Below, one piece after another: positions 751 to 63,258 of a stretch of DNA of 64,000 nucleotides. A program made the translations under genes and the position numbers. Location: the NCBI GenBank assembly GCA_002197995.1, contig NGZR01000002.1:6262001-6326000 (forward strand). The letters are read 5' to 3'. How positions within the stretch are numbered: the stretch's first letter is position 1; each line of letters starts with the position of its first letter. Below the pieces are notes generated by a model. It saw only the letters and a program-made list of their open reading frames with translations. It had not been told where the DNA came from and did no database searches. The DNA is from Gaeumannomyces sp. JS-464 (Eukaryota; Ascomycota; Sordariomycetes; Magnaporthales; Magnaporthaceae).

Positions 751-3700
751 TCAGTCATCCTCGGCACTGACACCATTAGTTGTAACCCCGTTGGGCTGGC
801 TGACACCGTTGGATATTATCTTGATCCTGGGTGTCGTCGCCGATGGCTGGGGCGTGCCTGTGCCTGCCGAGGGGGCCACCGATGCCTCTTTGTCTTTGAC
901 GCGAGGATCTTCCAGCTCCATCAGCTCGGGATGCGCGCTGAGCTCCGCCTTGAATCTTTCGTTGAAGAATGCCTATCCGCCAAGTTCACACATAGTTAGC
1001 ATATCAAGCCTGTACCAAATCGGCGCCGATCCATCTCCTTCATCCCCACTCTGCGTCCTCGCATAGCACACGAGACCACACTAACCTCGATGGTATTCGC
1101 ATCCGAGTAAAGCAGGCTACCGTCCTCGTTGTACTGGCGGCAGTTGTTGCAGAGCAGCTCGATGTCGGCGCGCATGTCGCTAAGGCTTCCGTACTCCTCC
1201 TTCTTGATCTTGCTCTCGATCTGCTTCATCGCGATAGGCTTGGCGATGATGACATAGTAGTCTGCATAATCGCGCTTTGGCGGAAGCTTGACAAAGGGTC
1301 CGATGATGAGGCGCTTTATCGGCCCCTCATCGTCGTCGTCGTTCGCCTCCGGCTCGGGCTCTAAGTCGTCAACCTCGAGCTCCATCAAACCTTCGTAGAT
1401 CCGGTGGAGGCTCTTCTGAAGCACGTCGCGGTGCGGCGTCCCTTGCTTGCCTGCGCCTGATCCCGAGATCGCCTTTGGCCGGCCTTGGGGCCCTCTACGC
1501 TTCTTGGCCGGCGGCTCATCATCGCCGTCTTCCGCCTTCCGCTTCTCGTGCTTGCCGCCAGGCTTGCGCCCGCGCTTCTTGACCGGGGTCTCCTGCTCTT
1601 CGGTGCTCGCCCGGCTTGCTGACGGAGAGTTATCCAGCGACCCGTTGGATGCGGCCAGCCGCTTGAGCCGGTTCGCCTCCCTCTTGTCTTTGCGTGCCTG
1701 CTTTCGGGCGGCGGCGGCTTCGGGTGTGTCGTCGTCGTCGTCCACCGCCATAAGCCACTGCTCCTCCGTGAGACCGTCGTCGTATCTGACCTTGGTCCTC
1801 TCGCGCGCGCCACGGCCAAAGACCGTCTCCTCTACCTCCTCGACCGGATTGCCCTCCGACATGTAGATCTCGGGCAGTTCGCTCTCCACCATCAGACGAG
1901 GGACACCCTTGCATCCCGGGGCCGTTCCGTATATTGGATCATTGATCCGCTGCTCATCCAGCTCCTGGAACTTGACGAGTTCTGACTCATCACGCGCCAA
2001 TATCATATTGAGCTCCTCGTCGTCCATTTCTTCCTGCTCACCGGACTCGGCCATGTCCGCCGTTTCGAGCAGTGTCCGCAACATGGCGTCACGATCCGTC
2101 TCGGATGACTTGTTGTCGAATCGGCCGGCCTGAATGATCTTGCCATCCATGTCCAGCTTGAACCGTGCCCGGTCCAAGATCTTCTCCTCGACAGAATTGG
2201 AGTGGATGAGCCGGAGAATTCGGACCTCGTTCTTCTGCCCGATACGATGCGCACGATCCTGGGCCTGCAGATCCTGGTGAGGGTTCCAGTCGGAATCGTA
2301 AATGATGACGGTATCTGCCGTCTGCAGATTCAGACCCAGGCCACCAGCGCGGGTCGAGAGAAGGAACATGAAATAGGGTGAGTCGGGCCGATTGAACTGG
2401 TACAGCAGGTCCGAACGGTCCTCTGACTTGGTTGTACCATCCAGGCGCAGATACTGAAGCCCGCGGAACCGAAGGAAGTCTTCCATGATGTCCATGATGG
2501 CCGTCATCTGGAAGAACATGAGAACACGATGACCAGTGGCCTTGTACTTGGGCAGGATGCGATCCAACAGCTCGAACTTGCCAGCCGTGCGCCAGAGGAG
2601 GTCGTTGCTTGTGTTGCTCGGGTTCATCTGGTTCTCAACCTCGTCAAACACAAATGGGTGGTTGCAGAGCTTGCGGAGTTGCATGATCATGTTGCTCAGG
2701 CCACGCGCGCCCGTCTTGCCGCCCTTGCCATCGCTCACGACGAGCTTCTGGTGTTTTACCATTTGGTTGTACACACGAGCCTGCAGCGCCGAGAACTTGC
2801 ATTTGATCACCTTCTCGGTCTTGTCTGGCAGATCCTTCTCGACATCCTTCTTGAGACGGCGCAGCAGGAACGGGCGGAGAACCTTGTGCAAGCGACGAAT
2901 GACCAGGATCTGCTCTTCTTCCGTCAGCTCCATTTTGTCTTGACCGCCCGTGTTGGCAAACGGCGTGTTGAACCACTCGTCGAACGTCTTGGCCGACTTG
3001 AAGATGTTTGGGAGGGTGAAGTTCAGCATAGCCCACAGTTCCGCTAGGTTGTTCTGAAGCGGCGTGCCCGTGAGGATGAGTCTGAAGCGAGTCTGGTAGT
3101 ACTGCTGGATTGTCGACGTCAGTTTGGAGTTGCTGTTCTTCATCCTGTGCCCTTCGTCGATGATCATGTGAAACCACTTGATCTTGCTGAGAATCGGGCG
3201 GTCCTTGATAATGTACTCGTAGGTCGTGAGCAACACCTGGAACCTGCCCTGGCGGATCTTGTCCTGCTGCTGCTTTCGTGCGTTTGGTGGGCCCTTGTAG
3301 ACCACCTTGGTGACCGAGGGAGCCCATTTCTCAAACTCGAGCGTCCAGTTCGTCAAGGTACTCAGGGGTACGATGACCAAGTAAGGACCCAGCTGCTGCT
3401 TGCGCTCGATGAGGTACGTGATCAGACTGATGGTCTGGATAGTCTTGCCGAGACCCATCTCGTCTGCTAGGATACCGTTGAGGTTGTTGTTGTTGTACAG
3501 AGAGATCATCCACTGAGACCCTTGATCTGGTACTCCTTGAGCTTGCCACCGACAAGGATGTTTGCCTGTTCCGTCACCTCCTCCTTGATACGGTGGGCGA
3601 CGGCGTAGTAGTCGATCTTGCGCGCGCTCTCCTCGTCGTCGTCCGACCCTTGTGAGTCCTCATCCTCGACCACCTCCTCCCCACCATACCGCTCGGCTGC

Positions 3701-5207
3701 CTGCCGTTGCTGGGCCTTAACTGACGCGGCAAGCTGATGAAGGAAACCGTCTGTTTGCCGCAGGAGGTGAGTGATGCGAGTATCCTTGGCCTGGTCAAGC
3801 AGCTTGAGATACGCTTCTTCGTCGTTGGCCTTCAGGGCCTGCAGACGCTGCTTGGCGTTACGCTCGATGCGCTTCTGCTCCTCCTTCTCAATATTACTGT
3901 GATGGTTGGTCATCCAGCGGCCGAGCTTGGTCATCTTGGACTGCTGAGCCTGCGCGGACGAGTGCATCTCGGCGCGGTGGTTGAAGATGGCAGACAGGTA
4001 GTCCGAGTGCTTCTTCTTCTCGCGGTGCTCCCGGGCGTCGCGCTGCTGCTTCTCCAGTTTTTCGGTAATGCGCGCCTCGCGCACACTCTGCTTCTTCATG
4101 CGACGGTAGTGGCTTCGATTCGTTGTCATGGCCAGGTTGTCGTAGTTCACCATGAGGCGGCCAGTCTTTTCACGGAAAGCGCGCTGCTTGGAGTAAAGCT
4201 GGATCTTCATCATCTCGATGATCGCTTTCCGCTTCAGCGTCTCGTCAGGGATGAGCTCGTCTTGGGCGGTGTCCCAGTGAGCGATGTTGCCGGCGATCTT
4301 TTGCAGCTCATTGTACCTAGTGCTCATGCGGTTGAGGATGATGGTTTCCCCGCTCCGACCGAAGCTGCTCGAAGTCGATCCCTACTGGGGTGATCCCTGG
4401 GACGATGTAACGCATGTCGCGGTGGCCATGATCAAAGTGTGTTATGCTCCCACGGACATGACCCATCTCCCAGGGTGACTTGAATTGCCTGAACTTCTTT
4501 CCCTGTGTCGCAGCCGCAGCGGAAGCCGCATGCGAGGCATCGATTCCATTCGAGAGTCCTTTGGGCTGGCTGCTGGTGGGGCTAGGCTGAATGGCAGAAC
4601 CTGGTGTTGTCCGATCGTTTTGCTCCGCTGCTCCCGCTGCTGCCGCTGCGGCGGCGGCTTGTCTCTGTTGGCGGGCGGCAGTGATCATGGCCGTAATATT
4701 TGGCGGTACCCCGGTGTTCTTGACCAGCACCTTGTATGCAGTGAGTTGGTTCCTCAAAAGGGCCAGTTGCTGCGGGGAGAACGCGCCGTTGGCACCTGGG
4801 GCGGCGGATGGAGACGAAACGGATACGGAGCTTGCAGAGTTGTTCGGTGCAGCCGGCAATGTCGAACCAGTTGGGGCAGCCGAGGCGGGTTGGGCCGGTT
4901 TTCCGTGCATATGATCGTTCGGCCCAGGAATGTGGTTTGCTGTTCCATTAGTAGCAGCATTCTGCATCTGTTGCTGCTTCTGCTGCTTTCGGTAGTTCTG
5001 CTGTGCTTGAACGTTCCGCAGAAAGTTGGAGAGCTTGTTGAGCTCGGGGTCTGTGTGAGGAACGCCCTGCTTCTTCAGCTGCTGATACCGAGAAAACACA
5101 TCTTGAATCTGTTGGCTACTCATCCCAGCAGGCATCGCGCCGCCGCCCAGCTGCTGCTGGGTTGGCGGCTGTTGCTGGGACGCGGGCATTGCTTGGACCG
5201 AAGCCAT
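751..5207 (-). CDS. snf21: Snf21/Sth1-type SWI/SNF-RSC chromatin-remodelling ATPase
   Basis: ATP-driven nucleosome remodeller, the motor of an RSC- or SWI/SNF-type nuclear complex. In order I see a QLQ-like segment (residues about 30-65), a Q/A-rich linker, an HSA region (about 330-410), the Snf2 ATPase with DEMGLGKT (about 583), DEGH, the LTGTPLQNN motif and QAQDRAHRIGQ, a basic K/R-rich stretch, and a C-terminal bromodomain (about 1280-1380). The last intron is 1085-973, with a perfect TGCTAAC branch site. The final exon ends at TGA 753-751. Two single-base frame breaks must be bridged: an extra base in the C4 run at 4348-4351 (frame resumes at residues ETIILNRM) and a missing base near 3515 (GLQWMISL). 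Bridged, the product is about 1,447 aa, normal for the family. Whether it is the RSC or the SWI/SNF motor cannot be settled without a tree; length favours Snf21/Sth1. Confidence 0.93.
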
Positions 5208-6316
5208 GTTAACGGCGACCTCCCCAAGCCTATCGACGAGCCGGTCGATGAACCGAGCGTGGCAACTTCAAGGGCTATTTCTGCGTCGGTCGCATAGCGG
5301 AAAGGGGGGCGCGGAGGGGCGGCGCGTGTTGTCGAGTCGCAGGAGTGCTGCTCACACAAAATCGGGAGGCGCGTCGAAGGGTGTGCCGTCGTTGTGGGTT
5401 GGCAAATTGTCAAGCGCAGCGATAGCGCAGAAGCAATGCACGGGATTCAGTCGCGTCGAGTAGGGTAAGTATGGTTATGGCCGAGCCACGATGGTCGAGA
5501 CGTGACGGTGCGTTGATTGATGAGTGGGGGTCCAGGAGCACCAAGCCGTGCGACCGCGGTTGCTTGGGGAAGAAAAAAAATAAAAAGAGCGAAAGCGTGC
5601 ACGTATGCCAGACGGGCAATAGACAGGCTGGGGGACAACGAATGGTGGTTTCGGGTAAAGTATGGGGGCCGAAATCAGGTGGAGATGAAGCCTCCGACTT
5701 TTTGGTGATGGCTGCCGATGATCGCGAGGCGGTTTGGCGATTTTTTTCGATGCGCGCACCTCGTCGCCTTTGATGATGGGGAGTGAAGGCCACGACCGAC
5801 CGACAAGATTCGTGTGTGATGGGACTGGAGGTAGCCACTCATCCAAACCCCACTTAATGTCAATGCCTGAGGCAGTGACGCTTGGGCCCCATTCCGCGCT
5901 AATCCCAACTCAGCAGCCCCGTCCAGAATTCCCAGCCGTTCCCAGACTGGGACATTCCAGCCGCATTCAAGGAACCACCTATGGAGAGGGAGCTCCCAAT
6001 TGCGCCTGCTTTGATTACAACATGCATCTCAGAAGCGACTCCATTTTTCTCACCTTTATGACTTGTACGCACGGCGAAAGCTCGTTTGTATCGGTTATTT
6101 TACATGGCAAAGCACAGCGACCTCTCCTGGTCACGGCCATCTGTATGTCGGTCTTCATCAGTCTCCCTCCTGGCACAGTCACCACTAAGGCAACGAGGTT
6201 TCCTCGTGCTTGGGAATCCAAATCAAATCGCCACCGATAGCAGAGACGTGGTAGATTGTGCACATTCACCCCCATGGACTTGTTAGCCTCGTATCTTCCA
6301 TTTCCATTAAATTCCT
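5208..6316. other. Intergenic: promoter side of snf21 and 3' side of wdr70
   Basis: About 1.1 kb upstream of the snf21 start and downstream of the wdr70 stop; both genes are on the minus strand. I see no conserved coding potential. The overlapping short ORFs on both strands lack domains. Confidence 0.6.
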
Positions 6317-8048
6317 CTACTTTTTTTGCCGCTTCTTATCTGGGCCTTCATCAGCCTCCTCGTCACTCTCCTCCGTATACTGCGTGACTGGCTGGGTGTC
6401 CTTCCAAGCATTTGTAAACATGGGATCCCTGGTAGCGATGTCGGCATACTTCAGGAGGGCTTCGCGAGGATCCTCGTGTAACATGCGGCTAAGAGGAATG
6501 TTCTCTTCGATATGCCGTTCATCTGGCTGACTCTTCTCGAAGGGTGTGTGCTTGGGGACCTGCGGCCTCCTCGGGTCCAGCGATCTTCCAGAAGCAGTGA
6601 CGCCGCCGCGTCGTGTCCCCACGCTGGCCCCCGGTGTGATGATGGAGTCGGCCGAAATTCCGACGCTTTGATCCATGGTCAAAGATGGATTGTCGTCGAT
6701 GTGCCGTTTCTTGGGCGCCCGTGACATGACCTCGAGAGCGCCGCGCGAGGACATAGACGGATTGTAGAGAACGTGGGTCTCGGCGTTCGCAGACCCTGTG
6801 ATGATCTGGTTCAACTTCGCGTGCCAATCGACCACAACCAGAGGGGATCCAGGTGTGATCGGAGTAACAAGCTCTGGCCGCAACGTCCCAGGGTTCAGGA
6901 TGTGCAAGTCGCCATTTGCGGACCCGGTGATGATACTGGTGGAGTTTGGTGAGTACTTGATGTTGGTCATGCGAAACCTGTCTGCCGTAGACTGGTGCGA
7001 CGCGACAACGAGCGGTTCCCTGAGCTTGCGCGTGTCCCAAAGCTTTATGAGGTCATCCCCACCCCTGGTAACGACCATGCGGCCGTCGGCACTGATATCG
7101 AGGCCACTCGTCCAGGTGTCGGGCTTGTGCGCGTCTCTCACCTCGGCAGCCGGTCGCGTGAACGGGCCTTCGCCGCCGTACATGACCAATGAGCCATCTA
7201 GTGCAGCCGCCACGAGGATGCTGCTCCCCCCTGGGCCGGCGACCCCCACGCAACAGCCGTCATCTTGGAGCGGCCAGCAGCGCCAGCAGCCTTGGATTTA
7301 AAGACAATCACGTCTTTCTGTGACCTTTTGTTGTTGATATCCCATATCCGCAAGGTGCTGTCAGACCCTGCCGTGACACATATGTTCTTGTCCGTTGGGC
7401 TCCAGGCGCCGGTTGCGATCTCCCCGATGTGTCCCTTAGTATTATGCATATCTCGAAGGTACATGTCCCCCTTGACGAACTCTGTCAGGATCTGACCATC
7501 CCTGGAGAGGATCTTGGCCTGAGGGTGAGCCGATATGCAGAGGAAGACGCTCCCGAAAGGGGACTAAACTGGACGAGGTTTATCGGGTGCGACTCGGCCG
7601 ACGCAGCCGACTTCTTGGTCTCCCACGGGTCAACACTCTTGAAGGCGCGGAGAGTCGTCGGTGTCATCGAAGCAAAGTCATGCATTTTGATGGTGCAGTC
7701 GAGCGAAGCGGACACGAGCCGAGAGCCGGCCGGATCCAGCGAGACGGTCGTGACCGCCTTGCCATGAGTCTTGAGGACCAGCTCGTGGGATACGGGGTAT
7801 TCATCGGCATCGTCAGAGTCGGAGTCGGAGTCGGAATCATCCGAGCTGTTGTCGTCAGAATCAGGCTTTGACGTCTTTGGTTCGGCGTTGTCCTGCACCT
7901 TCTTAGCTTGCTTGTTGTCGATGTTGCGTCTGCTTCTCTCTATTTGAGCGGCAATGTCTGCTTCCTTGTCCTTTTTGCCAAATGATGTCGGAAGAAAGGC
8001 GCGCATCTGGGCCTCGTCCGCGACGAGCGCTTCCTCGGAGTCACTCAT
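6317..8048 (-). CDS. wdr70: WDR70-like WD40 repeat protein
   Basis: WD40 beta-propeller protein of the WDR70 family, nuclear and linked in fission yeast and human to CUL4-DDB1 and histone H2B ubiquitylation. Shared family signatures are visible: the YPVSHELVLK entry into the propeller after a D/S-rich tract, NTKGH, the RGGDDLIKLWD repeat, the LNQIITG segment, and a C-terminal PREALLKYAD segment followed by an acidic, lysine-rich tail. No intron is needed. The frame breaks twice by one missing base: in the CCC run at 7552-7554 (conserved residues FSPLSG precede it) and in the C5 run at 7243-7247 (after TAVAWG). Bridged, the ORF is 577 aa. Both breaks sit in conserved propeller blades and resume exactly in register, so I read them as sequence errors. 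The gene is absent from budding yeast. Confidence 0.88.
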
Positions 8049-8497
8049 GGTGAGTGTCTAGGCGGGCAAGCCTTGTCGCATCCGTGTAATATTAATTAGA
8101 AGCCACGCAGCGAGGCAAAAGACGAGCCGGTAAGGATGTGTCGAGATGCCAACGACCTATGTCGAGAGGCGCGTAGCGAAAAACATGGGTATAGTAGGAG
8201 AAAGGCGTTTAGAAGATTGAGAGACAAGAGACGGGTGCAGAAGATCGCCTCGGTCGGTGAGCAGAATGCGATCCAAGTAGTATTCCCCTTTAATGGAGTT
8301 GGTTCTGTTCTCTCAGATGGACAGGGCCGCCGGACTTCGGTGCCCACACCTCAGCCCAGTGACGTGTGATGGCTGGGGTCTCAATGGTGCAGTTTTAGGT
8401 GGACTCTGTCGCGTTTTGTGCTAACACGGTGCATACACACTGTTTCCTCATGTCGTGCCTCGCCGCACCGGGCCCTGTAGGCCTGATCAATGAACCG
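8049..8497. other. Intergenic: promoter side of wdr70
   Basis: 449 bp between the start of wdr70 and the stop of the dioxygenase gene, both on the minus strand. I see no coding potential or recognisable site in it. Confidence 0.6.
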
Positions 8498-9645: not shown

Positions 9646-10165
9646 GATTTCTACTCGAACCAGTCGCTCAGAGTGATCACTTTCGAGGGCGCATGCGCTA
9701 TCTCTCGAGAGCGGCTGGTGTCCCGTCTCAACGTCAGGTATTTATACCTCCTCAAGATTCACGAACTCCAGCTCCAGTCACCCGTGCCGCCTGTGCGGGG
9801 AATATACCCAAGCTGCATTACAGATCATCGGGTATTGCTTATTCCCGTCTTACCCAAACACGGAGAGTTGTGATGCGAGGTTGACCGCATGCATTACCGG
9901 CCCCTCTTTTCGATCAACTAAACTTGATGTTGGACCCACATATTTTTCTCTCCTGTCGCGACCAGGTCAACGCGCTCGACTGGGAGAGCTCATCCCACCA
10001 CCCGTCTAGCCAGAGGCACGCAAAGCACCAGAATACATCCATTATTCGACATCTACCCGTTCTCTCAGCACACTGCGCGCATGAGCAACGCCAACGAACG
10101 AACCTGAACAACCAAACATCACCTACATCTGCTTTTGGCAGTCAGGAAGCACCTCACCTGCCAAA
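9646..10165. promoter_or_regulatory. Divergent promoter region, PhyH gene / SWC5
   Basis: 520-bp gap between two head-to-head start codons, so it must hold both 5' leaders and both promoters. I see no clear TATA box or known operator in it. Confidence 0.55.
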
Positions 10166-11252
10166 ATGGCGCTCGCGGCGGATCCAGAGGACCAGTACAT
10201 CTCCTCGGAGGATTCGGACTTCGCACCTGACGAGGATGGTGTACGCGATGCTTCGCCCGAGGACCCAGACGACGATGATGCCCAAGATGCGGGAGCGACA
10301 AAGCGGAAACGAGCGTCCGGGGAGGACGAGGCCGATGACGCGGGGTTCGAGAATTCCGGAGACGAAGCTATCATTCAAAATGCAAAGAACAAACGGCGCA
10401 GGAAAGGAAAGGAGCTTGAACCTGGGCAGGATGACGAAGGTGGAGGGCAGGGTGGGTTGATCAAAACTCGCAGCCAGCGCGCATTGGAGTATGTCTATAC
10501 ATCTCTTTGATCAGTCATAATCTTCCCCAGTTTTTGCCGCCGAATTTGCTGACGAGGTCCCCTAGAAAATCCGAACGGAAAGCCTTTGCCGCCAGTGGGC
10601 AGGTGACCATCGATGTCGATTTGTTGTGGGCGGAGATGAATCGGCCCCAACCCTCAGCACGGCCAGAGTTGCCGGAAAAGCAAGCGAGCGAGACGGCCAC
10701 AGGTGCTGTCCGCAGCACCGGAGACGCCTTCACTGTGTCGCAGACAGCCGTGGCCAACAAGTCTCCTGACCAAGACTCATCCCCTATGGTCAAGATAAAA
10801 CGGACATACAACTTCGCGGGTAAAGTCCACATCGAGGAAAAGCTCGTTCCGTGGGACTCAGCGGAGGCAAAGCTCTATACGGAGACCTCGACTGAAGATA
10901 CGGATCCGAGTGCCACTGATCAGCCAAAGCGTAGACCAAGGAAGGCGTTCAGATCAATCTTCGAACCGGCTCCGGAGCAACTGATGCAACGAGCGGACCT
11001 AAACCTGGGCATTGCGGCAAGAATGAAGGCAAGAGAAGGGGGCAAAGAAGGATCCGAGCCCAAGAAGCTCACCACTTTGGAAAAGAGCCGTGTGGATTGG
11101 GCTGGCTAGTGGACAAGGAAGGTATTCAAGACGAGCTCAAACTCGCCGGCAAGTCAAAGCACTCGTACACAGAGCGCCAGGGTTTCTTAGCTCGCAGCGA
11201 GGCCCGCAGAGAAGAAGACGCCAGGAAGGCTCGGCTGGCTACCCGAGCGTGA
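10166..11252 (+). CDS. SWC5: SWC5/BCNT-domain subunit of the SWR1 complex
   Basis: SWR1-complex subunit needed for exchange of histone H2A.Z into nucleosomes. Exon 1 (10166-10488) encodes an acidic, D/E/S-rich N-terminus, as in yeast Swc5. The intron is 10489-10565 (GTATGT, TGCTGAC branch, CCTAG). Exon 2 carries the basic middle and the diagnostic BCNT-C domain: LTTLEKSRVDWAG, then VDKEGIQDEL, HSYTERQGFL and the RREEDARKAR helix, ending at TGA 11250-11252. Between DWAG and VDKEG the frame slips by one missing base at about 11109, producing an in-frame TAG. Restoring one base gives 336 aa with the domain continuous. Because the break falls inside the most conserved block, an error is likelier than a pseudogene. 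The stop lies 113 bp from the convergent dehydrogenase gene. Confidence 0.87.
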
Positions 11253-11365
11253 TGGGCGCCACTTATTTACGAGGTCTCCTGTACGCAGCCATCTTGGCAT
11301 CAGTTCGCGCTGAGCTCGGAATATTGCTTATGCATTGCCTGGGCAACCTCTGTCGCCATTGAGAG

Positions 11366-40400: not shown

Positions 40401-40617
40401 CCCATCTCGCCGCGACATCTGCGAAGACGGGCTCAAAATGGGCGAAGAGCCTGTCTGTCAGCTGCGGCTGGTCAAGGGCCGCCTCGGCGACAGCGTCTAG
40501 AGCACTTGTCGAGCTCTCCCACCAGCCAATATTCTGCAGCTCTGGAGGCAAGAGCCCGAATGTGGCCGCATCACCGAGCAGAGAGCGGATCTGCGGGCTC
40601 GCGTCGATTTGCGGCAT
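25429..40617 (-). CDS. MDN1: Midasin, dynein-like AAA+ ATPase of 60S ribosome assembly
   Basis: Giant nuclear ATPase that strips Ytm1 and Rsa4 from pre-60S particles. The 15.2-kb coding frame (about 5,060 codons) appears intronless. All six AAA+ Walker A motifs are present, read on the minus strand: GLSGSGKTS (39648-39621), GETGIGKTT (38651-38623), GPTSAGKTS (37323-37295, broken), GETGCGKTT (36447-36421), GNPGVGKTT (35294-35266) and GASGAGKSY (34360-34331). These are followed by the helical linker, a D/E-rich tract (about 28050-26700) and the C-terminal MIDAS/VWA domain with DDSLSMG (26130-26110). About a dozen single-base frame breaks interrupt it, near 38900, 37321, 37033, 36981, 36408-36420 (two), 34130-34200, 30660, 30312, 29190, 28013 and 26695. 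At most of them a one-base change restores conserved residues. The gene is essential wherever tested, so these are read as errors. It is head-to-head with the bL12m gene. Confidence 0.95.
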
Positions 40618-49706: not shown

Positions 49707-52174
49707 AACGGTGGCATTGAGAGCGCCCTCCAAAGCCGTGGTTGGGAACTGCGAGGTCACCAGCATGAATCTGGTGGTTCGCGGGCAGTCGGCCAGATTG
49801 CCGGCCAACATCTTCAAGTGCCATGTTATAATACAGATCACGGTTTGAATATAGAAGGCAGAACAGTCTGCAGCATGCTCGCGGCCAGAAGTTTTGGCTG
49901 ACCGCTGGGTATGTGTCGAAAACATCGGCTCACCAGCGGCCTGGGAAACGCCGTTGGTGGGGCAGATCAATTATGTGTGAATAAGGGGTAACGAAGAAGA
50001 CATGGTCAATGGCAGTTATACCTGCAACATTTCTGCATATCATCCCCTCTTGGAGCCTGAGGAGGACTGTTCTCCAGACAGATGTAGATATTGCCTTGTG
50101 CGGGCTCATATATTGGCCCTTGTTCATTTCTCCCTGAGGCAGCAATAGCAATAGAGCCCCCGTCTAGCAATGCACTTCAGCCCACGATGCGTGTTGCTTG
50201 AGGCCAGCACTGGGGATTCAGCCGGCTGTCAAATGTTCAGAACTCTCTCCTGACGCTTATCCGTTGTAGAAGTCTGAGCCTCCAATGTGGTATTCCTGCC
50301 GCCTCGCATGAGATGAGCTGCGGGTGAGCCACCATCATACACCGTGCCAAGGGAGGCTGCGACGTTTTTACAATGCCACGTCCGTAGATCGGTTCCTACC
50401 TGGGGAGGTACTTACGTAGATGGAAGCTCCCCACCTCGCAGATACCAAGCCCCCAAGGTAGAGACTCTATGTTCATGTATGAACTTCGCAGTCAGCAACA
50501 AACTACCTACCTAAAGTAGGTGGGCGCACGATGTGCCACGCACCAATACCAAAAACTGTTAACCAAGGAAGTCTTCGATGGGACAGGCACATGGTTTTGA
50601 GCCAATGATCCGTACCTAGGTAGGTTCGTAGCCACGTTTAGCGGTACTCATCCGCCCCCGCTAGGTGCCGCCCAAGTGCTTTGAAATACCTAGGGTGCAG
50701 CCAACTTGACGTCTCTTGATGGAGCGTTCGTCTGGCGCTCGGGCTTGCTGATTCGCTTATTCTCCTGCCGTCGAGTTTCTCAGGTGCTCTTCAGCTCCCC
50801 CTCCCCGCCCTTGGGTCTAGGGGGTCTAGGGGGCCTAGGGGTCTCCCTGGTCACTACGTGATGGCCGACGGAATTTTCTTTCGTGCCGAAACCAAGGGAG
50901 GGGAGGGATCGGTTGGTTTCTTGACGGATAGCTTACTTTCTATATGTGTATTGAATCTGACGGCTTGGTAAGGGGCGTCCCCTCCCACGTAATTTTGGAT
51001 GGCAAGCTGCTCTGTCGCATGAAGATTGCCGACAGACGGGCCCCTGTCGGTGCTAACGCGTGTCATCCTCTCCCTCGGTTGGCTCGCCCAATTCTCAACG
51101 GCTAGGAACCTAGATGGGCATACTGGGGGTACGGACACCATGGCTAAACATGTTGATATTTTTGCCCATCCAAGGCAGGTACCTCGGCGGGTGCAGTGTA
51201 GCAAAGCAGTATCATGGTCCATGTAATGCCCTGGCTCCATTGGCTTTGGGAGGGCGGATGCAATTTGATGGTGGTCGAGAGTCTGCTGTCAGTGGTGCCA
51301 GCGCCTGGGCTGGCGTGGTGGCGCCGCATCCCCTGCTTTCCCACCCCTGCCGCTCCCTAAAACGAGTGAAATCGTGCCCGATTCACTCCCGTTTCCCCTT
51401 TTTTTTTTTTTTTGCCAATCCAGGACAGGGAGGCGGTACCTTGCCCGCGCGGCTGCGACACTGCAAAGCCCAGGTACATGTTTGCACCTCCACAGCGCCC
51501 AGAAAAACCCACCCTTTCCACCCCCGTCCGAATCCACTCATGGTTTCCAATCTCCTCTGTAGTTCGTTCCCCGTCCCATCCCTCCTCGACCTCAGCCAGA
51601 CCTCAACCACCGCCCTCGGCCTTCCGATCGCTCTCACGACGCCGTCACACGCATCTGCTGGATGCTGCCGATCCCAGCGTCGGGCCTCAGCCTCGTTCTC
51701 GCCCGCCACAGATTCACTGTGCACCCTGTGCAGGGCTGGCCAGCAGACAGCGCCGCGTCCCAAGTCTGCTCGTTTTAAGACCCCCGAGTATTTACCTCGA
51801 CGATACGGCCTGAGGTTAGCGCTCCTTCGCCCATGTTCACACGGCCTGCCTAGAGGCACTCCTGTATTGTGCCCGCGCCGAAAGCCGTCCAGTGCCGCCG
51901 CGCCTGCTTCTGTCTTCGCGCCTCACTGACTCGGTCCTCGGACAAGCAGATTCGGCAACCAGCGAAGACGATACCCCACCGCAGCCGAATCAGCCGATGC
52001 TCGCCGGCCGCCACGCTTTAGAAGCATCTGTAAATAAAACCCACCCGCTCGTTTCGATCATCTCGATTTTAGAATCTCCACAAACTGCCGTTGTCGCCCT
52101 TTCTGTTTGTTTTACTCGGAGCCGTCGAACTTTGAACCACCACCCTCTTGGTTCGAGCCTCGGACCAGGGCGAC
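49707..52174. other. Long intergenic region with TAGG-type motifs
   Basis: 2.5 kb with no supportable gene, downstream of the ZIP9-like gene and upstream of the F-box/WD40 gene. Palindromic TACCTAGGTA/CTACCTAC motifs are scattered between about 50390 and 50700, a tandem CTAGGGGG-type repeat lies at about 50813-50842, and a T15 run at 51399-51413. From about 51420 on the sequence is C-rich and pyrimidine-rich and probably holds the long leader of the F-box gene. Confidence 0.6.
50813..50842. repeat. Short tandem repeat, unit GGGTCTAGG
   Basis: Three imperfect head-to-tail copies of a 9-10 base unit (GGGTCTAGG, GGGTCTAGG, GGGCCTAGG). It is not the TTAGGG telomere unit. It sits within the cluster of CCTAGG-containing motifs in this intergenic gap. 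Confidence 0.7.
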
Positions 52175-54545
52175 ATGGCCGGATACCACAGACCTCTCAG
52201 TTTCTCGGAGAGGCGAGGGAGCACCTTCAATGGCGAGGAGTTGAACCTCAACACCGCTGGCGGCGTCAAACTTCAACAACCTCGCCCTCCCCGGGGCCCG
52301 CCGACGCCGAGCATGAACACCCCCGCTGCCGACTTCGACCAGACTCTCACAGGGTCGCCGCCGCCGCCTCCTACGCCCGCCGCCTCCCCCGGCCCGTCAC
52401 ATAGCCAGCTAGACTGGAGCAGATGCCGCGGATGACGAAGACTTTTTTCTCGCCAAAGTGCGCCAGCACTTCCAGAACTGCACCGGTCCCCAGCGGACCC
52501 GGGTCCTCGCCGACCTCCTGAACCTCTGCACAAGCCAGCAGCTCAGCTTTGTTCATCAGTTTGTCAGCCCGTTGCTGAAGAAGGACCCCTTCACAAGCCT
52601 TCCCGACGAGCTATGTCTCAGGGTAAGCTAGCATGTCGTTTGCAACGGCGTCGTGTTTGGGGCGAATCTGGCTTCGTTTCGGAACTGACGCTGCGCGCAC
52701 GCTCACTAGATTCTCTCTTTTATCGATGACCCCAAGGTCCTGGCCCGGGCTTCGCAGGTCTCCAGGCGATGGCGAGATCTTCTGAGCGACGACATGACGT
52801 GGAAAAACCTGTGCGTGAAGCACGACTACGGACGTAGGTTGTCCGAGGTGCACCCGCCAGCATCCAGCCACTCGCTCAGCCGCCCCTCCGCTTTCCCTCT
52901 CAGCATGGGAGACTCCGATGTCTCGAACCGCAGCTTCCCGGGGGCCCTTCCTACACCTTCGCTACGGTTGCCCACATCTCCCAGTTTCGATGGGGTGTCG
53001 CCATCGCTAGGCACATCTCGTCCGACTCTGAAAACGTACAAGTCTCACTTCAAACAGAGATATCTTGTGGATGCCGCTTGGAGGACGGGAGGTCAGAACG
53101 TGACTCGCAATATCACTCAGGAGGGGGGTGTCGTGACAAGTCTCCACCTCACGCCCAAGTACATCATCGTGGCTCTGGATAACGCCAAGATCCATGTGTT
53201 TGACACGGAGGGGAATGCCCAGCGCACCCTCCAGGGCCACGTTATGGGAGTCTGGGCCATGGCTCCCTGGGAGGATATTCTGGTCAGCGGCGGTTGTGAC
53301 CGTGATGTCAGAGTCTGGGATCTATCTACAGGGTATGGTAGCCCATAACGGTCTCCTCCCGTGCGCCTTGCTTGTAAGTTTCGCGCTGACAACTGTTGGT
53401 TTTCTACAGTATATGCCTCCACATCCTTCGTGGCCATACCTCGACTGTGCGGTGTCTCAAGATGTCCGACTCTAACACGGCGATATCGGGCTCGCGGGAC
53501 ACCACTCTGCGTGTCTGGGATATACGGTCAGGGCTCTGCCGCAACGTTCTGGTCGGTCACCAGGGCAGCGTGAGGTGCCTGGAGATCAAGGGCGATATTG
53601 TTGTTTCTGGCAGCTACGACACATATGCCAAGGTCTGGAGCATCTCGGAAGGTCGCTGCCTACATACGCTCCAGGGCCACTACAGCCAGATCTACGCCAT
53701 TGCATTTGACGGCTTCCGGGTCGCTACCGGAAGTCTCGACACTAGTGTTCGCATATGGAACGCCACAACAGGGTTTGTCTTTTCCTCCCTGCCACCCTAA
53801 ATGTGCTCCTGACCCTGAGGCAGAGTACTAATGCCTCTTCACGCTGTGCAGAGAGTGTCAGGCTGTTCTGCAGGGACACACCTCGTTGGTTGGGCAGCTG
53901 CAGATGCGAGGCGAGACCCTCGTGACTGGCGGATCGGATGGGTCGGTGCGGGTGTGGTCTCTGTCAAAATTCTGCCCCATCCACCGGCTTGCCGCCCATG
54001 ACAACAGCGTCACGAGCCTGCAATTTGACGATACGCGAGTTGTCAGCGGCGGTAGCGATGGGCGTGTTAAGATATGGGATCTGAAGACGGGCCATCTCGT
54101 GCGCGAGCTCGTCGCTCAGTGCGAAGCCGTATGGCGGGTTGCTTTCGAGGACGAGAAGTGCATAGCGATGGCATCGAGAAACGAAGGACAATTATGGAGG
54201 TAAGCATCAATTTTTGGTGGCGCAAATTTTTTTTTTTCTTTTCTTTTTTTTTTTTCCTGGCTGGGACCTGTTAGAAGTGCTCACTAACTCGACCTTTCAC
54301 CCCCGTAGTTATGGTCCTTCTCTCCACCAGAAGAGATCATGCACGAGCGGCCACTTTCTCTTCCACAGAGGCCGCACGAGACGTCTACTCGACCCATGAG
54401 TGCCTTGCCTTTGGACTACAGGAAATCACATACTTTGATTCCTGGCATCCCAAGACGGGACAGCCAAGACGTCGACATGAGGGATGCCGGCCCCTCAACC
54501 GCACCTTTGCAACAAGGCAACGCATCGTTTTTCCGCGAAGACTAG
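52175..54545 (+). CDS. F-box/WD40 protein, Cdc4/FBXW7-like SCF substrate receptor
   Basis: Substrate adaptor of an SCF ubiquitin ligase: the F-box binds Skp1 and the WD40 propeller binds phosphorylated targets. Exons: 52175-52622, 52710-53332, 53410-53772, 53852-54199, 54309-54545. After a P/S-rich N-terminus comes a conserved helical block (FFLAKVRQHFQNCTG, QQLSFVHQFVSPLL). The F-box is DPFTSLPDELCLRILSFIDDPKVLARASQVSRRW at about 135-170, then a linker and seven WD repeats with typical GH...WD spacing (DRDVRVWD, TTLRVWD, AKVWS, SVRIWN, SVRVWS, RVKIWD). Two one-base breaks are bridged: an extra base near 52420, and a missing base near 54317 at the head of the last exon, which restores a tail ending ASFFRED. 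The length is then 672 aa. The orthologue (Cdc4, Pop or FWD-1 class) cannot be fixed without a tree. Confidence 0.88.
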
Positions 54546-55564: not shown

Positions 55565-57238
55565 ATGCTCTCCAGAGGCCTCAGGATAGGTCGGGCAGTG
55601 CAGGCCCCGCTGCGCCAGCGCACATATGTTCCCACGATCGCTGCCGCTCGCAGGAGCGTCACGACGGATGCCGCTTCTTCGCATGTCGAAAAGGGCGCAG
55701 TTCCCAAGGTCAGTTCCATCTAGGCCTCCCGAACCACGCAGCGGCGTCTCGGGCCCCCGAGCAGGCCAATTGTGTCTCCCTGCCTGCCTCGCCCTGTCCC
55801 AGACTTGGGGTTGGAGGTTACTTCGCGCTGGCAGACGCAAATGATAAGCGCCATATGGTGCTGTAAGCGGACGGCGATGGCTGATCGTACCCGCACGATT
55901 CCAGTCCGACGATGAGCCCTTTACCGTCAACCTAAGCGACGAGAGCTTCGAAACCTATGAGCTCGACCCGCCGCCATACACTTTGGAGGTGACCAAGAAG
56001 GAGCTTAAGCAGATGTACTACGACATGGTTGTGGTTCGGTACGTTGTCGCGAACACATACGCTGTGTTATTTTAACGGGCTGCGCTGGTTGTCCCGTTAC
56101 CTCCGCGACTCATAGCCTGCTTTCCGCTAGGCCCGGCTAACGCCGATTCTGTACGACCAGGCAAATGGAAATGGCGGCGGACCGGCTGTACAAGGAGAAG
56201 AAGATTCGGGGCTTCTGCCATCTGTCGACAGGGCAGGAGGCGGTTGCGGTCGGTATCGAGCACGCCATCAATAAGTCGGACGACGTTATCACATCGTACC
56301 GATGCCACGGCTTCGCCTACATGCGCGGCGGCACGATCCGCTCCATCATCGGCGAGCTGCTGGGCCGTCGCGAGGGTATCGCCTACGGCAAGGGTGGCTC
56401 CATGCACATGTTCGCCAAGGGCTTCTACGGCGGCAACGGTATCGTGGGCGCTCAGGTCCCCGTCGGTGCGGGCCTGGCCTTCGCTCAGAAGTACACCGGC
56501 GGCAAGAAGGCCACTGTCATCCTGTACGGCGACGGTGCCAGTAACCAGGGTCAAGTGTTCGAGGCGTTCAACATGGCGAAGCTGTGGAACCTGCCCGCGC
56601 TTTTTGGCTGTGAGAGTAAGTCGGCCCCTAATGTTCCGAGCGGTCCGGTGCACCGTGCGCACGCGACTGTGCCGTATAGCGGCCGATCCGAGCTACGTTG
56701 CTGACGTTTCGATCCTACTTCTATAGACAACAAGTACGGCATGGGCACATCCGCCTCGCGCTCGTCGGCTCTGACGGACTACTACAAGCGCGGACAGTAC
56801 ATTCCCGGTCTGAAAGTGAACGGCATGGACGTGCTCGCGGTCAAGGCTGCGGTCAAGCACGGCAAGGAGTGGACCGAGGCGGAGAACGGCCCGCTGGTTC
56901 TCGAGTACGTCACGTACCGCTACGGTGGCCACTCCATGTCGGACCCCGGCACGACGTACCGCACGCGCGAGGAGATCCAGCGGATGAGGTCGACCAACGA
57001 CCCGATCGCCGGGCTCAAGCAGAAGATGATCGATTGGAGCGTCGTCTCGGAGGACGAGCTGAAGAACCTGGACAAGGAGGCGCGCAGCTTCGTGAATGAG
57101 GAGGTCAAGGCGGCCGAGGCTATGGCCCCTCCCGAGCCGACCCAGCAGATCCTGTTCGAGGACATTTACGTCAAGGGCACCGAGCCGTCACACATCCGTG
57201 GCCGCACTCCGGATGAGCTTTTCTACTTCAACAACTGA
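55565..57238 (+). CDS. PDA1: Pyruvate dehydrogenase E1 component, alpha subunit
   Basis: Thiamine-diphosphate enzyme subunit that decarboxylates pyruvate in the mitochondrial pyruvate dehydrogenase complex. Exons: 55565-55708, 55905-56038, 56161-56615, 56727-57238; 414 aa, clean frame. The N-terminus ([14 protein letters not shown]-rich, no acids) is a mitochondrial presequence. [35 protein letters not shown] is the family opening. The ThDP/Mg2+ motif runs from GDGASNQGQ to ENNKYGMGT, with intron 3 splitting its asparagine. The regulatory phosphorylation loop [21 protein letters not shown] holds the serines used by PDH kinase. The C-terminus [13 protein letters not shown] is normal. Because of intron 3, a simple ORF scan would miss the complete cofactor motif. 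Confidence 0.96.
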
Positions 57239-58093
57239 TTTGTGTTGACAATTAGGAGATGCACCGAAGGACTGTTCTTTTCTTGTGTTCAATGCCCTAA
57301 CGTAATAAGCATGGATGGATTGGTCGGTTACGCTTGGGCCAGGTAGACTATGAATTCGTATGTATGTACAATAGATTGCCTCGGCGCCTCTTTCTGCAAG
57401 GCTATTGCGCGTCTTTTTTGTTCTTCGATCGGCAAAATTATCCCCTGATCATGGTTCAGGAGATGCGGGAGCCAACTTAGGTGGTGTGTAACTGGCACAG
57501 GGGAGAGGTCCTAACCATACAGGATGAGCGTTGCGATCATTAGTGTCCGTCAGGGTGTAACGGCGGCTGGGAAGGATGGAATCACACGCTGCAAACTCCA
57601 TGTAGGAGACGTGCGCGTTGAGACTTGTAATCACTACCACTTGTAACTCCATGCTCAAGAAGATCTGTGTGCAAAAAGTGGGCCCGTTCTAGGCTAGCTG
57701 GTGGCAGTTTCCTTTTCTTGCGGGTCCGCCGTGTAACGGGCTCTCTAATTGGCCTATCCCTGTGAGTCGCGTCGCGTGTCGGGTGCTATCCATCATCGAG
57801 GGCACCTACCTGCATCTAAGTCTAGGGTGAATTGGTGTTGGTCCCCTCCCGACGATAGGCAGCAGCTGAGTGATTTGTCCAATTTCTGATTTTGCCTGGG
57901 GAGTTTCTTCTCCTTCTTTGCCTGTTTTATTGTCTTCGACGTACCTCGTCGAGAAGGCCGAGGGAACTTGGATCCAGGAGTGGCAACAGCGACAATCCCG
58001 GTACGCAAACTTCTCGATCCGCCACAATTCATCGTGGCTTCGAAGCAGCTCCTCACCCTGGCCGTGACGAGCGCTGCTCGCAGACCAATCAGG
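57239..58093. other. Intergenic: PDA1 3' side and LIG1 promoter
   Basis: 855 bp between tandem plus-strand genes. Nothing coding is supported; the long minus-strand frame from about 57806 runs antisense into the ligase gene. I did not recognise a cell-cycle box with certainty. Confidence 0.55.
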
Positions 58094-61000
58094 ATGGCCC
58101 CCAAGCAGGCCACCTTGGGGTATGTCAAACCTTCGCAAACCACTTTGGGGCATGTTCACGGTTGAATCAGGTTTGCTTCGCTGCGTGCGCAAGGGTGACG
58201 AGTGTTGTGCTGACCGGCGCATGTTGCGGCTTGCAGAAAGTTCTTTGGAAAGGCCTCCCAGCCCTCTCCCGCACAGCAGACCAAGCTCTCCTTCTCTCCC
58301 AAGGCGGGCGGTTCGAGCTCCAAAGCCAAGGGGCCCCCAGAGGGCCCTGAGGCCACGGACGCCGACGCTGCTGCCGATAACGATGACAAGAAAGAACCCC
58401 GCACCGTTGCCCTTTCTTCCAGGCCGAATCCGAAACAAGCTGCTAGAAGCAACCGCACGGCAGTGAAACGTGAGGAGGCCGAGGATAATGCCCTCGAGGC
58501 GGATCAGCCCCCGGCCAAAAAGGCTCGCCGGGGACGCAAGGTCGTGGACGAGGACGAAGATGAGGACGAAGTGATGGAGGCTGCCTCCGAAACCCAGCGC
58601 ACCCGGAGAAAGTCGCAGGACTCTATCACCAAGGAAGATGAGGGGAGCACAACTGCAGCGAAGAAGAAAAAAAGCAGGAAATGGCCGAGGGTGTGCCATC
58701 CAAACCCAGCAGCCCCAAGACAACAGCCCGGGCGGGAGCCACATCCGGAAAGTCGTCCAGGGGCCGCAAGGCTAAGGCTGCTGCCGTGAAGGAGGAAGAG
58801 GAAGAGGATGGTGTGTCTGGAAAGGAGGTCTCGAGCGCAGAGTCTGCTTCAGAGGCTGAGAACAGCATGAGCGAAGACGAGAAGCCAGAGGTGACGGCCA
58901 AGGTGCGCAAGTCGGTCCAAAAGGCGCTGTCCAAGCCCGCGGCGGAGGACCCCTTCCCGGATTGGAACCCGGGTGAGCCGGTTCCCTACGCGGCCCTCTG
59001 CACAACGTTTTCGCTCGTCGAGCTCACCACCAAGCGGCTCATAATCATGGAGCACTGCTCTCTGTTCCTGCGTCAGGTGCTGCGGCTGACCCCCAGCGAC
59101 CTCCTCCCGACTGTGCTGCTGATGATCAACAAGCTGGCCGCCGACTATGCGGGCATCGAGTTGGGCATCGGTGAGTCGCTCATCATGAAGGCCATCGGCG
59201 AGTCGACAGGGCGCAGTCTGGCGGTGATCAAGCAAGACCAGAAGGAGATTGGGGACCTTGGTCTAGTTGCCGTCAAGTCTCGGTCGACGCAACCTACCAT
59301 GTTCAAACCGAAGCCGCTGACGGTCCGAGGCGTGCACGCGGGCCTCATAGGGATCGCCACGGTGTCGGGAAATGGTGCACAGGGGCGCAAGGTCGATATG
59401 ATCAAGAAGCTGCTGTCGGCAGCCGACGTCAACTTGACCGGCAAGGTTGACATCGCCAAGGACAAGGGCGGTCCCAGCGAGGCCAAGTATCTGGTTAGGT
59501 TTTTGGAGGGGAAGCTGCGCCTGGGACTAGCCGAGAAGACGGTCCTAGTCTCACTCGCGCAGGCAATTATAGCCCATGAGGCGTCAAAAAACGGCACCGT
59601 GCCTAGCACATCAGATGTCGAAAAGGCCGAGGCGATGCTCAAGACAGTGTACAGGTATGTTCCCCCGTCAATTCAGATCCCGACAACGGACTACACCAAA
59701 GGCCGCGTTTCTGATTGCTATCCTGGACGTGCAGCGAGTTGCCCAGTTACGAGATTATCATCCCGGCAGTCCTAGATCATGGCATCATGAATCTTAAGGA
59801 GAACTGCAAGCTCCGGCCAGGCATTCCCCTGAAGCCCATGTTGGCCAAGCCCACCAAGGCCATTACTGAGGTGCTGGACCGGTTTGAGAACCAGACTTTC
59901 ACTTGTGAGTACAAGTACGACGGTGAGCGGGCGCAGATCCACTACGTGGCCAAGGACGCCGATGAGGAGCTCAGCCAGGCGCTGCCAGGAGCCAACAAGA
60001 CGACTGGAGCGGGCGTGGCTGCCATCTTCTCGCGCAATTCCGAGGACCTGTCCAAAAAGTATCCTGATATCCTGTCCAAGCTGCACACATGGATCAAGGC
60101 CGACACCAAGAGCTTTGTGCTCGACTGCGAGACGGTCGCCTGGGACGTGGCCGAGAAGAAGGTGCTCCCCTTCCAGCAGCTCATGACGCGCAAAAAGAAG
60201 GACGTCAAGATCGAGGACGTCAAGGTCAAGGTCTGCGTCTTCGCCTTCGATCTGCTATACCTCAACGGAGCTGCCGTGGTGGAGAAGTCGCTGCGCGAGC
60301 GGCGAGAGCTGCTCGCGGCCTCGTTCGAGCCTGTTGAGGGCGAGTTCGCCTTGGCCACGCACATGAACGGCCAAGAGCTCGACGAGATCCAGACCTTCTT
60401 GGACGAGAGCGTCAAGGCCTCGTGCGAAGGCCTGATGGTGAAGATGCTGGACGGAGCCGAGAGCGGGTACGAACCCAGTAAGAGGAGTCGTAACTGGTTG
60501 AAGGTATGTCGTTTTTGCTGTACGCCCATCCCTTTCAGTCGCATACATCACAGGCTGCCTCCCCACCTCCCTCACGGGTATCCAACTAACGCCTGCGGTT
60601 GCGACATCTCAGATCAAGAAAGACTATCTCTCGGGCATTGGCGACTCTCTTGACTTGGTGGTACTGGGCGCGTACTACGGCAAGGGCAAACGCACGTCGG
60701 TGTACGGAGCGTTTCTGCTGGCATGCTACAACCCGTCAAGCGACACGTACGAGACGATATGCAACATTGGCACTGGATTTTCGGAAGCAGTGCTGGAGGA
60801 GCTGCACTCACAACTCAAGGACACTGTCATCGACCGCCCCAAGCCCTTTTACTCGCACAGCTCGGGCGGGCAGCACCAGCCAGACGTCTGGTTCGAGCCC
60901 CGGCTGGTGTGGGAGGTCAAGACGGCGGATCTCACGCTCAGCCCCAGGTACAAGGCCGGGTGCGGCGAGGGTGTCGACCCGGCAGGGACCAAGGGCATCA

Positions 61001-61149
61001 GCCTGCGGTTCCCTCGCTTCATCAAGCTCCGCGACGACAAGAAGCCTGACCAGGCCACATCGAGCCGACAGGTGGCTGAAATGTACCGCAAACAAGAGAG
61101 CGTGTCCAAGAGCAAGGGGCCCTCTGTTGACGACGATTTCGAGTATTGA
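58094..61149 (+). CDS. CDC9: ATP-dependent DNA ligase I (Cdc9-type)
   Basis: Replicative ligase that seals Okazaki fragments. Exons: 58094-58119, 58237-59654, 59735-60503, 60613-61149. The N-terminus reads MAPKQATLGKFFGK, a perfect PCNA-interacting box (Q5, L8, F11, F12), split by intron 1. A long acidic/basic disordered tail follows. Next come the DNA-binding domain (PYAALCTTFSLVELTTKR onward), the adenylation domain with nucleotidyl-lysine in EYKYDGERAQIH (about Lys542), FVLDCE (motif III), FAFDLLYLNG (IIIa), CEGLMVKML (IV) and RSRNWLKIKKDY (V), and the OB fold ending VSLRFPRF-like (GISLRFPRFIKLRDDK). One A is probably missing from the A7 run at about 58666-58672, in the disordered region. 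Bridged, the protein is 916 aa. It is the only replication enzyme in the window. Confidence 0.95.
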
Positions 61150-61495: not shown

Positions 61496-63258
61496 TCAGT
61501 CTTTTTCCTTTACCTTAACACCACCATTCTTGTCGTCCTGTTTGAGCTTGTCGGACTTTACAACGTTCCCAGGGCCAAAGGTGCGGACCTTGCTCAGGGT
61601 GCGCTGGCGCATGGCGGCCATGATCTGGAGCTCCATCTTCTCGATGCCGCTCTCGAGGTCGGCGTCCTCGGCGGCGTAGTGGCGCTCGCGGCGGCGGTCC
61701 CAGACGAGCCAGCAGACGACGATGGCGAGGGTCAGAGGCACGGTCAGGGCAAAGTATATCCAGAGCGAGTCGGCCACGACGGGCTTGCCGTCCTGGGCCT
61801 TGAAGTCGAAAAAGGTCATGCTGAAGACGGAGGCGAGGAAGGTGGCGGGCAGGAAGATGGCGCCGAGCAGCGACAGCGTCTTCATGCTGTTGCTGTCGCG
61901 CTTGGAGGCGTGGGCCAGGCGGCGCTGCTGGCTCGCGATCTCGAGGCTGAGGCGCGACTCCTTCTGGGCGAGCGTGTTGTAGAGGGCGGCGCGCTGGATG
62001 CTGAGGCGCTCGAGCGTCGTGTGGGCGTAATTCTCGATGCCGCGCAGCTTGGCGCGGTAGAAGTCGAGGCGCGCGAGCATGCTGCGGTGGGTGCGGTCCA
62101 GGTCGCCAAAGGGACCCCCGCCGCGCTCGCGGGGCACCAGCTGCAGGCGGCCGCGGAACAGGACCAGGGCGTCCTCGACGGCGCGCACGATCTCGAGGTA
62201 GGCCTGGGGCCGCTTCCACAGGACCTGCGAGTGGCACTCGACCAGGTCGCGGTTGAGCTGGTCGAGGTCGAGGTCGAGGTTGCGCACGTAGCTCTCCTTC
62301 TCGTGTATCTCCTCGCGCATGCTGACGGCGTGCTCGAGGCGGCGCAGCCAGTCGCGCGCGTCGCGCTGCTTGACGTCGTTCTTCGGGCTCAGGTCGTGGC
62401 TCAGCACGACGACGGGCAGCAGCAGCGGGTGGCCGACGTGGGCGGCGCAGGCGCGCACGTGCCGGACCGCCTCGACCAGGTCCGACGACTCGGTGCCCTT
62501 TGCGTAGCCCGACGTGATGCCGGTCCGGAACGAGTGCGACAGCATCAGCTCCCAGCCCCGCGTGCGGCCCTTCTTGCGCACGTCCGACTTGCGGAAGATG
62601 ATCTGCAGGTGCGGGTCCGCGTCGTCCTGGTCCAGCGCGCACCAGAAGAAGGGGCCGACCACGGCGGTGCCCTCGATGGCCCGGAACGGCAGCCGCATCC
62701 CCCGCACCATGGTCTCGTACTCCTCCGCCGTGAAGGAGATGACGTTTGGCGCGAAGGTTTCGGGGTCCTGCGCCTTTTGCTGCAGTCTGCGAGCGTCCCG
62801 AGACGTCGGTCAGCCAGCCCGTGGCTCTGCGTCCCTGGACAGGCGCCCTGCAAAAAAAAAAAAAAAAAAAAAAACATTTCCTTACACTAGGCGCAGGCCG
62901 TTAAGAAGCTTTGGCTCCGTTCTTGGGACTTGGCGGCTCAAAGACTCCCTGAACGGCGGGTTCGAGTCTGCTTGTCAGTATAGAGAGCACATATTCTTCC
63001 TCCCTTTCTTGGATGTCAAAGACCAACCCTGCGGTGAATAAAGTTCTCGAACTCGGACATGGGGAGCGGGTGCTCCTCATTGCTTTTCATGGTCGGGTCC
63101 TAGAGCACGACACACATGCATCAGCATCAGAAACGGGCGCCCCGAGCAGGAACCGGGCGGGTTGGGCGAACCGAGTAGTTGAGAATCTCGAGGTAGCTCG
63201 TCGCCTCGGTCACATTTCTGCAGTCCTGTACCAGGTTCTCGAACATGTAGTCGTCCAT
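61496..63258 (-). CDS. CorA-like Mg2+ transporter domain protein
   Basis: Member of the fungal branch of the CorA/ZntB superfamily. The main exon (62786-61496) starts LQQKAQDPETFAPNVISFTAEEYE. It continues with WELMLSHSFRTGITSGYAKG, a long helical cytosolic domain, and two C-terminal membrane spans (SLLGAIFLPATFLASVFSM and LWIYFALTVPLTLAIVVCWLVW), the topology of CorA. The loop after span 1 has MTFFDF where bacterial CorA has GMN, as is usual in the fungal family. Upstream I propose exons 63258-63172 (MDDYMFENLVQDCRNV), 63099-63029 and 62948-62886. The last intron (62885-62787, GTAAGG donor) contains an A23 run (T23 in the sense strand). The exon 2/3 junction needs one base removed from a GGG, so the 5' part is tentative. 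Modelled length is 503 aa. The transported ion is not proven. Confidence 0.8.
62852..62874. repeat. A23 homopolymer inside a CorA-like gene intron
   Basis: Uninterrupted run of 23 A on the plus strand, read as a T23 pyrimidine tract in the last intron of the minus-strand gene. It precedes a decoy GCAG; the acceptor that keeps the frame lies about 60 nt further on. Confidence 0.85.

What the first reader, a model, noticed from the sequence alone, without database searches (positions are those of the whole stretch)
751..63258. Window-wide single-base frame breaks in conserved genes
At least ten conserved genes (snf21, wdr70, SWC5, SDR, GST-kappa, MDN1, ZIP9-like, F-box/WD40, CDC9, CorA-like) are broken by one-base gains or losses, mostly in runs of 2-7 identical bases. 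In most cases a one-base change restores conserved residues exactly. YTA7, RPA49, CTK3, PRO3, HAT1, PDA1 and the PhyH gene are clean. Several broken genes are essential in relatives, so the pattern points to an uncorrected consensus (for example homopolymer-prone reads), not gene death. Automatic annotation would yield dozens of false short genes here.
Basis: partly seen in the sequence, partly recalled or inferred. Interest (0 to 1): 0.75.

Follow-up and report, generated by a model that had tools for sequence, protein, structure and literature searches.

The report
Uncorrected base-count errors in assembly
Several conserved genes of this fungus look broken, most likely because the assembled sequence carries small uncorrected base-count errors, so the pattern is a data-quality fault and not new biology.

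Summary
The frame breaks are in the sequence; the best explanation is residual insertion/deletion error in an assembly consensus. The window lies on a 9.6 Mb contig of a 53 Mb, 34-contig assembly of a Magnaporthaceae fungus (relatives). Frameshift- and intron-aware alignment to relatives finds 14 breaks in MDN1, 2 in snf21 and 1 in CDC9, of both signs, one or two bases, without in-frame stops, at 88.7-95.5% protein identity. Searches found no second MDN1 or snf21 copy. Reading frames by eye adds wdr70, SWC5 and the F-box/WD40 gene; SDR, GST-kappa, ZIP9-like and CorA-like were not tested. The same happens elsewhere: a coding model frame changes in 96.8 coding kb outside the window, on 7 of 9 contigs sampled, and 14 in 38.3 kb inside (some are introns). 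So it is a property of the assembly, not of the window. Homopolymer enrichment is real but modest: 6 of 16 sites near a run of 4 or more. Four RNA genes on small contigs also lack one base, suggestive only. No reads were available.

The parts
754..5208 (-). snf21/STH1 chromatin remodeller; 2 frame breaks (about 3516 and 4349) and one 113-nt GT-AG intron (973-1085)
   Evidence: 1379 of 1444 codons identical to G. avenae protein P0001; same breaks with three relatives; separate pieces 1-288, 287-568, 564-1376, 1375-1447; next match in the genome only 43% identical
6317..8057 (-). WDR70-like gene; two frame breaks between about 7200 and 7600, read by eye
10085..11300 (+). SWC5/BCNT-like gene; one frame break near 11105, read by eye
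19222..24484 (+). YTA7-like gene, clean: two long open pieces with no model-called frame change
25432..40618 (-). MDN1/REA1 (midasin), no intron with the two closest relatives, 14 frame breaks at about 38916, 37322, 37035, 36982, 36420, 34169, 30649, 30315, 29171, 29098, 29048, 28966, 28014, 26692 (placement uncertain by tens of bases)
   Evidence: 4475 of 5043 codons identical to G. tritici P0122, 4319 of 4797 to M. poae P0121, no in-frame stop; no other copy found
42055..43020 (-). CTK3, consistent with three exons; the model's frame change at 42488 is probably an intron
43889..45004 (+). PRO3 (pyrroline-5-carboxylate reductase), clean
45660..47150 (-). HAT1, no frame change in the tested piece; Hat1_N split over two pieces in one frame
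52136..54200 (+). F-box/WD40 gene; one frame break near 52421; the other frame jumps look intron-sized by eye
56141..57238 (+). PDA1 (E1 alpha), two blocks in one frame (profile 2-159 and 161-299) with a stop between, presumably in an intron
58093..61146 (+). CDC9/DNA ligase 1; one frame break near 58660 and three introns (58120-58236, 59655-59734, 60504-60612)
   Evidence: 846 of 911 codons identical to M. poae P0241

Best explanation
The breaks are residual one- and two-base insertion/deletion errors in the consensus of an assembly of a Magnaporthaceae fungus, probably from long reads (inferred from contigs of up to 15.7 Mb). The real genes are very probably intact. Shown: breaks of both signs in strongly conserved genes without introns or nonsense codons, and similar frame changes on other contigs. 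Inferred: that reads from the same isolate would not carry them, and that local drops in coverage or consensus quality explain the uneven spread.
For: 17 breaks in 22.2 kb of aligned codons, 0.77 per kb. MDN1 alone has 14, in a gene essential in yeast (recalled), with no second copy found and no in-frame stop with any of four relatives. Genome-wide, of 36 neighbouring-piece junctions in all 29 TCP1-family and all 51 SNF2-family matches, 12 change frame with no room for an intron, 4 are unclear, 17 are intron-sized and 3 stay in frame (TCP1, SNF2 recounted). The coding model frame changes in 96.8 coding kb outside the window and 14 in 38.3 kb inside. Runs of 4 or more are over-represented at breaks, 6 of 16. 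Among RNA genes, 3 of 19 ordinary 5S copies and 1 of 33 tRNAs with sister copies (L104) lack one base.
Against: Ten of 16 break sites have no nearby run of 4 or more. The three 5S losses are at one site and may be an inherited variant; the tRNA list holds the best-scoring candidates only, so it cannot give a rate. Long A/T runs of 12-23 nt are present in the window. Density differs between contigs (p=0.027): no frame change was called on C33 or C34, and few on C30. Residues beside MDN1 breaks are slightly less conserved than the gene as a whole.
Confidence: 0.95

Rival explanations
1. Introns were mistaken for frame breaks.
For: True for several junctions: CDC9 59655-59734 and 60504-60612, snf21 973-1085, probably CTK3 near 42488.
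Against: The aligner allowed GT-AG introns from 40 nt and still placed 17 breaks with no extra DNA.
Confidence: 0.02
2. The genes are decaying pseudogenes.
For: Frame breaks are what pseudogenes show.
Against: No in-frame stop in any of the three aligned genes, protein identity of 88.7-95.5% to the closest relatives, no second MDN1 or snf21 copy found, and similar frame changes across the genome.
Confidence: 0.01
3. The breaks are real in the DNA and the cell corrects them by programmed frameshifting or transcript editing.
For: Not excluded by the sequence alone.
Against: Gains and losses of one and two bases occur side by side, four breaks within about 205 nt of MDN1. As placed with G. tritici, the old frame stays open for 52-278 nt past five MDN1 breaks (37322, 36420, 34169, 30315, 26692; placement uncertain by tens of bases), unlike Euplotes, where stop codons specify +1 shifts (PMC10235951, start of abstract seen in the listing). 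Full-length predicted proteins exist in relatives.
Confidence: 0.01

Closest known systems
Gene-fragmenting indel errors of long-read assemblies (Kastor paper, PMC12007338; abstract and passages seen)
   Same: Small indels that split conserved genes across an assembly; the paper reports pseudogenes falling from 23.3% to 5.6% after correction, with detected errors under 0.05% of the genome
   Different: Its examples are bacterial, and it finds deletions highly associated with homopolymers; here that association is modest and gains (8 of 17) are about as common as losses (9 of 17)
Programmed +1 frameshifting in Euplotes (PMC4759687, PMC10235951; search listing only)
   Same: Many genes need a frame change
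   Different: Here signs and sizes are mixed, and several sites are not at a stop codon of the old frame
Magnaporthiopsis poae and Gaeumannomyces midasin, snf21 and DNA ligase 1
   Same: Same genes; 88.7-95.5% of aligned codons identical
   Different: Their records are full-length predicted proteins

Membership tests
Residual consensus error of an assembly | Small indels of both signs inside otherwise conserved frames | tested here: met
   of 17 breaks, 7 fit as +1, 5 as -1, 4 as -2, 1 as +2 (with the closest-used relative; a -2 could also be a +1 with a lost codon)
Residual consensus error of an assembly | Enrichment at homopolymers | tested here: met
   6 of 16 sites within 4 nt of a run of 4 or more, 8.4% expected, p=0.0011; but mean longest run only 2.9 against 2.4
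Residual consensus error of an assembly | Genome-wide, not gene-specific | tested here: met
   model-called frame changes on 7 of 9 contigs sampled; 12 clear frame-changing junctions in two protein families
Residual consensus error of an assembly | Indels of similar density in non-coding RNA genes | tested here: inconclusive
   3 of 19 ordinary 5S copies lack one base, all at one site; 1 of 33 tRNAs with sister copies (L104) lacks one base; 40 of 62 listed tRNAs fetched, and the list is of best scorers
Residual consensus error of an assembly | Reads contradict the consensus | not testable with these tools
   no reads held
Pseudogene | In-frame stops and relaxed conservation, or a working copy elsewhere | tested here: not met
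   (MDN1, snf21; for CDC9 stops and conservation only)
Euplotes-type programmed frameshifting | One direction of shift, at stop codons | tested here: not met
   mixed signs; five MDN1 breaks placed 52-278 nt before the old frame's stop
Spliceosomal intron | Extra GT-AG DNA at the junction | tested here: not met
   for the 17 breaks; met at four other junctions in snf21 and CDC9

The most novel reading that the evidence does not exclude
The breaks are real in the nuclear DNA, and this fungus restores frames across a large share of its genes by insertion/deletion editing of transcripts or by two-way programmed frameshifting.
Probability: 0.01. Interest if true: 0.97.

Novelty: not a real feature. 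Interest (0 to 1): 0.08.

Why it matters
It is a warning about the assembly: gene counts, pseudogene calls and protein lengths from it would be wrong, at roughly one frame break per 1-2 coding kb (0.77 per kb by alignment in three genes, 0.51 per kb by the rough model elsewhere). Gene-loss studies that use it uncorrected would report false losses. There is no new biology in the likely reading.

Tried and rejected
Local-error idea: rejected, because the model's density outside the window (0.51 per coding kb) is not lower than inside (0.37). Second gene copy: none found for MDN1 or snf21 (best candidates only are scored). The ligase domain has matches at three other places besides CDC9, taken as other ligase genes and not examined. 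Mitochondrial genome as a high-coverage control: only two short COX1-like pieces on contigs of 1.4 and 3.0 Mb. RNA genes as non-coding controls: suggestive, not decisive. Homopolymer-length spectrum to name the sequencing technology: no clear signature. Source paper of the assembly: not recognised in the listings. The coding model was trained on the same DNA that it scored, so its controls are in-sample. Inside the three aligned genes it called 12 frame changes: 11 lie within about 40 nt of an alignment break and 1 is an intron; it found 11 of the 17 breaks (compared by reading the lists). Dropped before the count: overlapping loci L009, L010, L012, L032; L001 and L014, which overlap the window; L055-L065. 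The odds of the best explanation were left as they were; the odds of the frameshifting rival were set equal to those of the novel case, which is the same reading.

Full report
What the window is. It is G000:C12:6262001-6326000 of a 53.0 Mb assembly in 34 contigs. C12 is 9.6 Mb, and the nine large contigs met in this work sum to 52.1 Mb (lengths). The snf21 piece is 97% identical to a Gaeumannomyces avenae protein and 90% to Pyricularia oryzae; a midasin piece is 93% identical to Magnaporthiopsis poae and 92% to G. tritici; a DNA ligase 1 piece is 96% and 95%. So it is a Magnaporthaceae fungus near Magnaporthiopsis or Gaeumannomyces, and by this divergence not M. poae itself.

Checking the breaks. 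I wrote a protein-to-DNA aligner that allows frame shifts, GT-AG introns and gaps, and ran it with relatives' proteins. snf21: 2 breaks and one intron, 1379 of 1444 codons identical, same breaks with three relatives; an independent six-frame search gives the same pieces. MDN1: 14 breaks with G. tritici, 15 with M. poae, 13 with P. grisea, 12 with Colletotrichum orchidophilum; 11 sites are common to all four within 100 nt, and three are found with two or three of them. P. grisea also gives one extra break beside a 274-nt 'intron' that no other relative supports. None of the four shows an in-frame stop. CDC9: 1 break, in the N-terminal tail, and three introns. Of these 17 breaks 12 fit as one-base and 5 as two-base changes; with M. 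poae one of the latter becomes two one-base losses 23 nt apart. By eye, wdr70 has two further breaks, SWC5 one and the F-box/WD40 gene one. SDR, GST-kappa, ZIP9-like and CorA-like were not tested.

Context of the breaks. Within 10 codons on either side, 38 of 39 residues are identical in snf21 and 235 of 280 in MDN1, the latter 84% against 88.7% over the gene. Six of 16 sites lie within 4 nt of a run of 4 or more identical bases, against 8.4% of codons (p=0.0011), but the mean longest run is only 2.9 against 2.4 (p=0.014). Breaks in MDN1 are somewhat clustered: 4 of 13 neighbouring gaps are under 100 nt (p=0.017); gaps under 350 nt are not significant (6 of 13, p=0.09). Clean genes such as YTA7 lie beside MDN1. 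This suggests uneven consensus quality (inference).

Genome-wide test. Matches to the TCP1 family (29) and the SNF2 family (51) were examined for neighbouring pieces in different frames. TCP1 gave 19 junctions: 8 clear frame breaks, 2 doubtful, 8 intron-sized, 1 in frame. SNF2 gave 17 junctions from all 51 matches: 4 clear frame breaks, 2 unclear, 9 intron-sized or longer, 2 in frame. A coding model trained on this DNA made no frame change in seven open pieces totalling 15.7 kb, an in-sample control. It called 49 frame changes in 96.8 coding kb of 48 loci outside the window (0.51 per kb) and 14 in 38.3 kb inside (0.37 per kb), with calls on 7 of 9 contigs. Some of these are introns: within the aligned genes 11 of 12 calls were true breaks. 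Density differs between contigs (p=0.027): highest on C32 (4 in 3.6 kb) and C23 (18 in 19.4 kb), low on C30 (2 in 13.1 kb), none on C33 and C34, where little coding DNA was sampled. The window is therefore not special.

Non-coding check. Of 21 high-scoring 5S rRNA copies, two are diverged; of the other 19, three lack one base, all at the same run of four, two on C32 and one on C33. Of 62 listed tRNA genes, 40 were fetched and 33 have sister copies among them; one, L104 on C32, lacks one base in its acceptor stem against its sisters. Three of these four losses are thus on the contig with the highest model rate. This fits consensus error and would not fit a mechanism that acts on reading frames, but the 5S losses may be one inherited variant and the tRNA list is of best scorers, so it does not decide.

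Could it be biology? Pseudogenes are made unlikely for MDN1 and snf21 by the lack of stops, the conservation and the lack of another copy. Programmed frameshifting would need gains and losses of one and two bases side by side and several sites away from stop codons. Introns are excluded for the 17 breaks.

Comparison with the known. Frame-breaking indels in long-read assemblies are well described. A 2025 paper reports that correcting detected errors in under 0.05% of a genome lowered pseudogenes from 23.3 to 5.6%, with deletions highly associated with homopolymers and insertions less so (PMC12007338; abstract, passages). The rate here, about 0.08% of coding bases in three aligned genes, is of that order. 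HiFi assemblies of Gaeumannomyces exist (PMC11905480, passages) and would serve as sister references. Verdict: a real pattern in the file, most likely an artefact of the assembly, ordinary.

Noticed in passing
   Followed up: partly
window 25432-61146: The M. poae midasin and DNA ligase 1 records both name a contig of 2,136,023 bases, and the G. tritici ones carry locus tags 006393 and 006401, so the MDN1-CDC9 neighbourhood looks conserved.
   Followed up: no
G000 contigs C31:2170651-2170854 and C33:374184-374543: Only two short COX1-like pieces were found, one with a TGA (not a stop in the mitochondrial code of these fungi, recalled) and one with a TAG, so the mitochondrial genome seems absent from the assembly.
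   Followed up: no
L034, L037, L050 (5S rRNA copies) and L104 (tRNA): Three of 19 ordinary 5S copies and one of 33 tRNAs with sister copies lack one base; three of these four lie on contig C32, the contig with the highest model-called frame-change rate.
   Followed up: partly
window 25266, 25284, 51399, 54244, 61446, 62852: A/T runs of 12-23 nt; no C or G run in the window is longer than 6.
   Followed up: no
L011 (C23:1545730-1549068): A TCP1-family gene with six model-called frame changes in about 900 nt, the densest patch; some of them may be introns.
   Followed up: no
window 9096-9142 (-): Two open pieces of the putative PhyH gene, in different frames, overlap here; break or intron was not resolved.
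   Followed up: no
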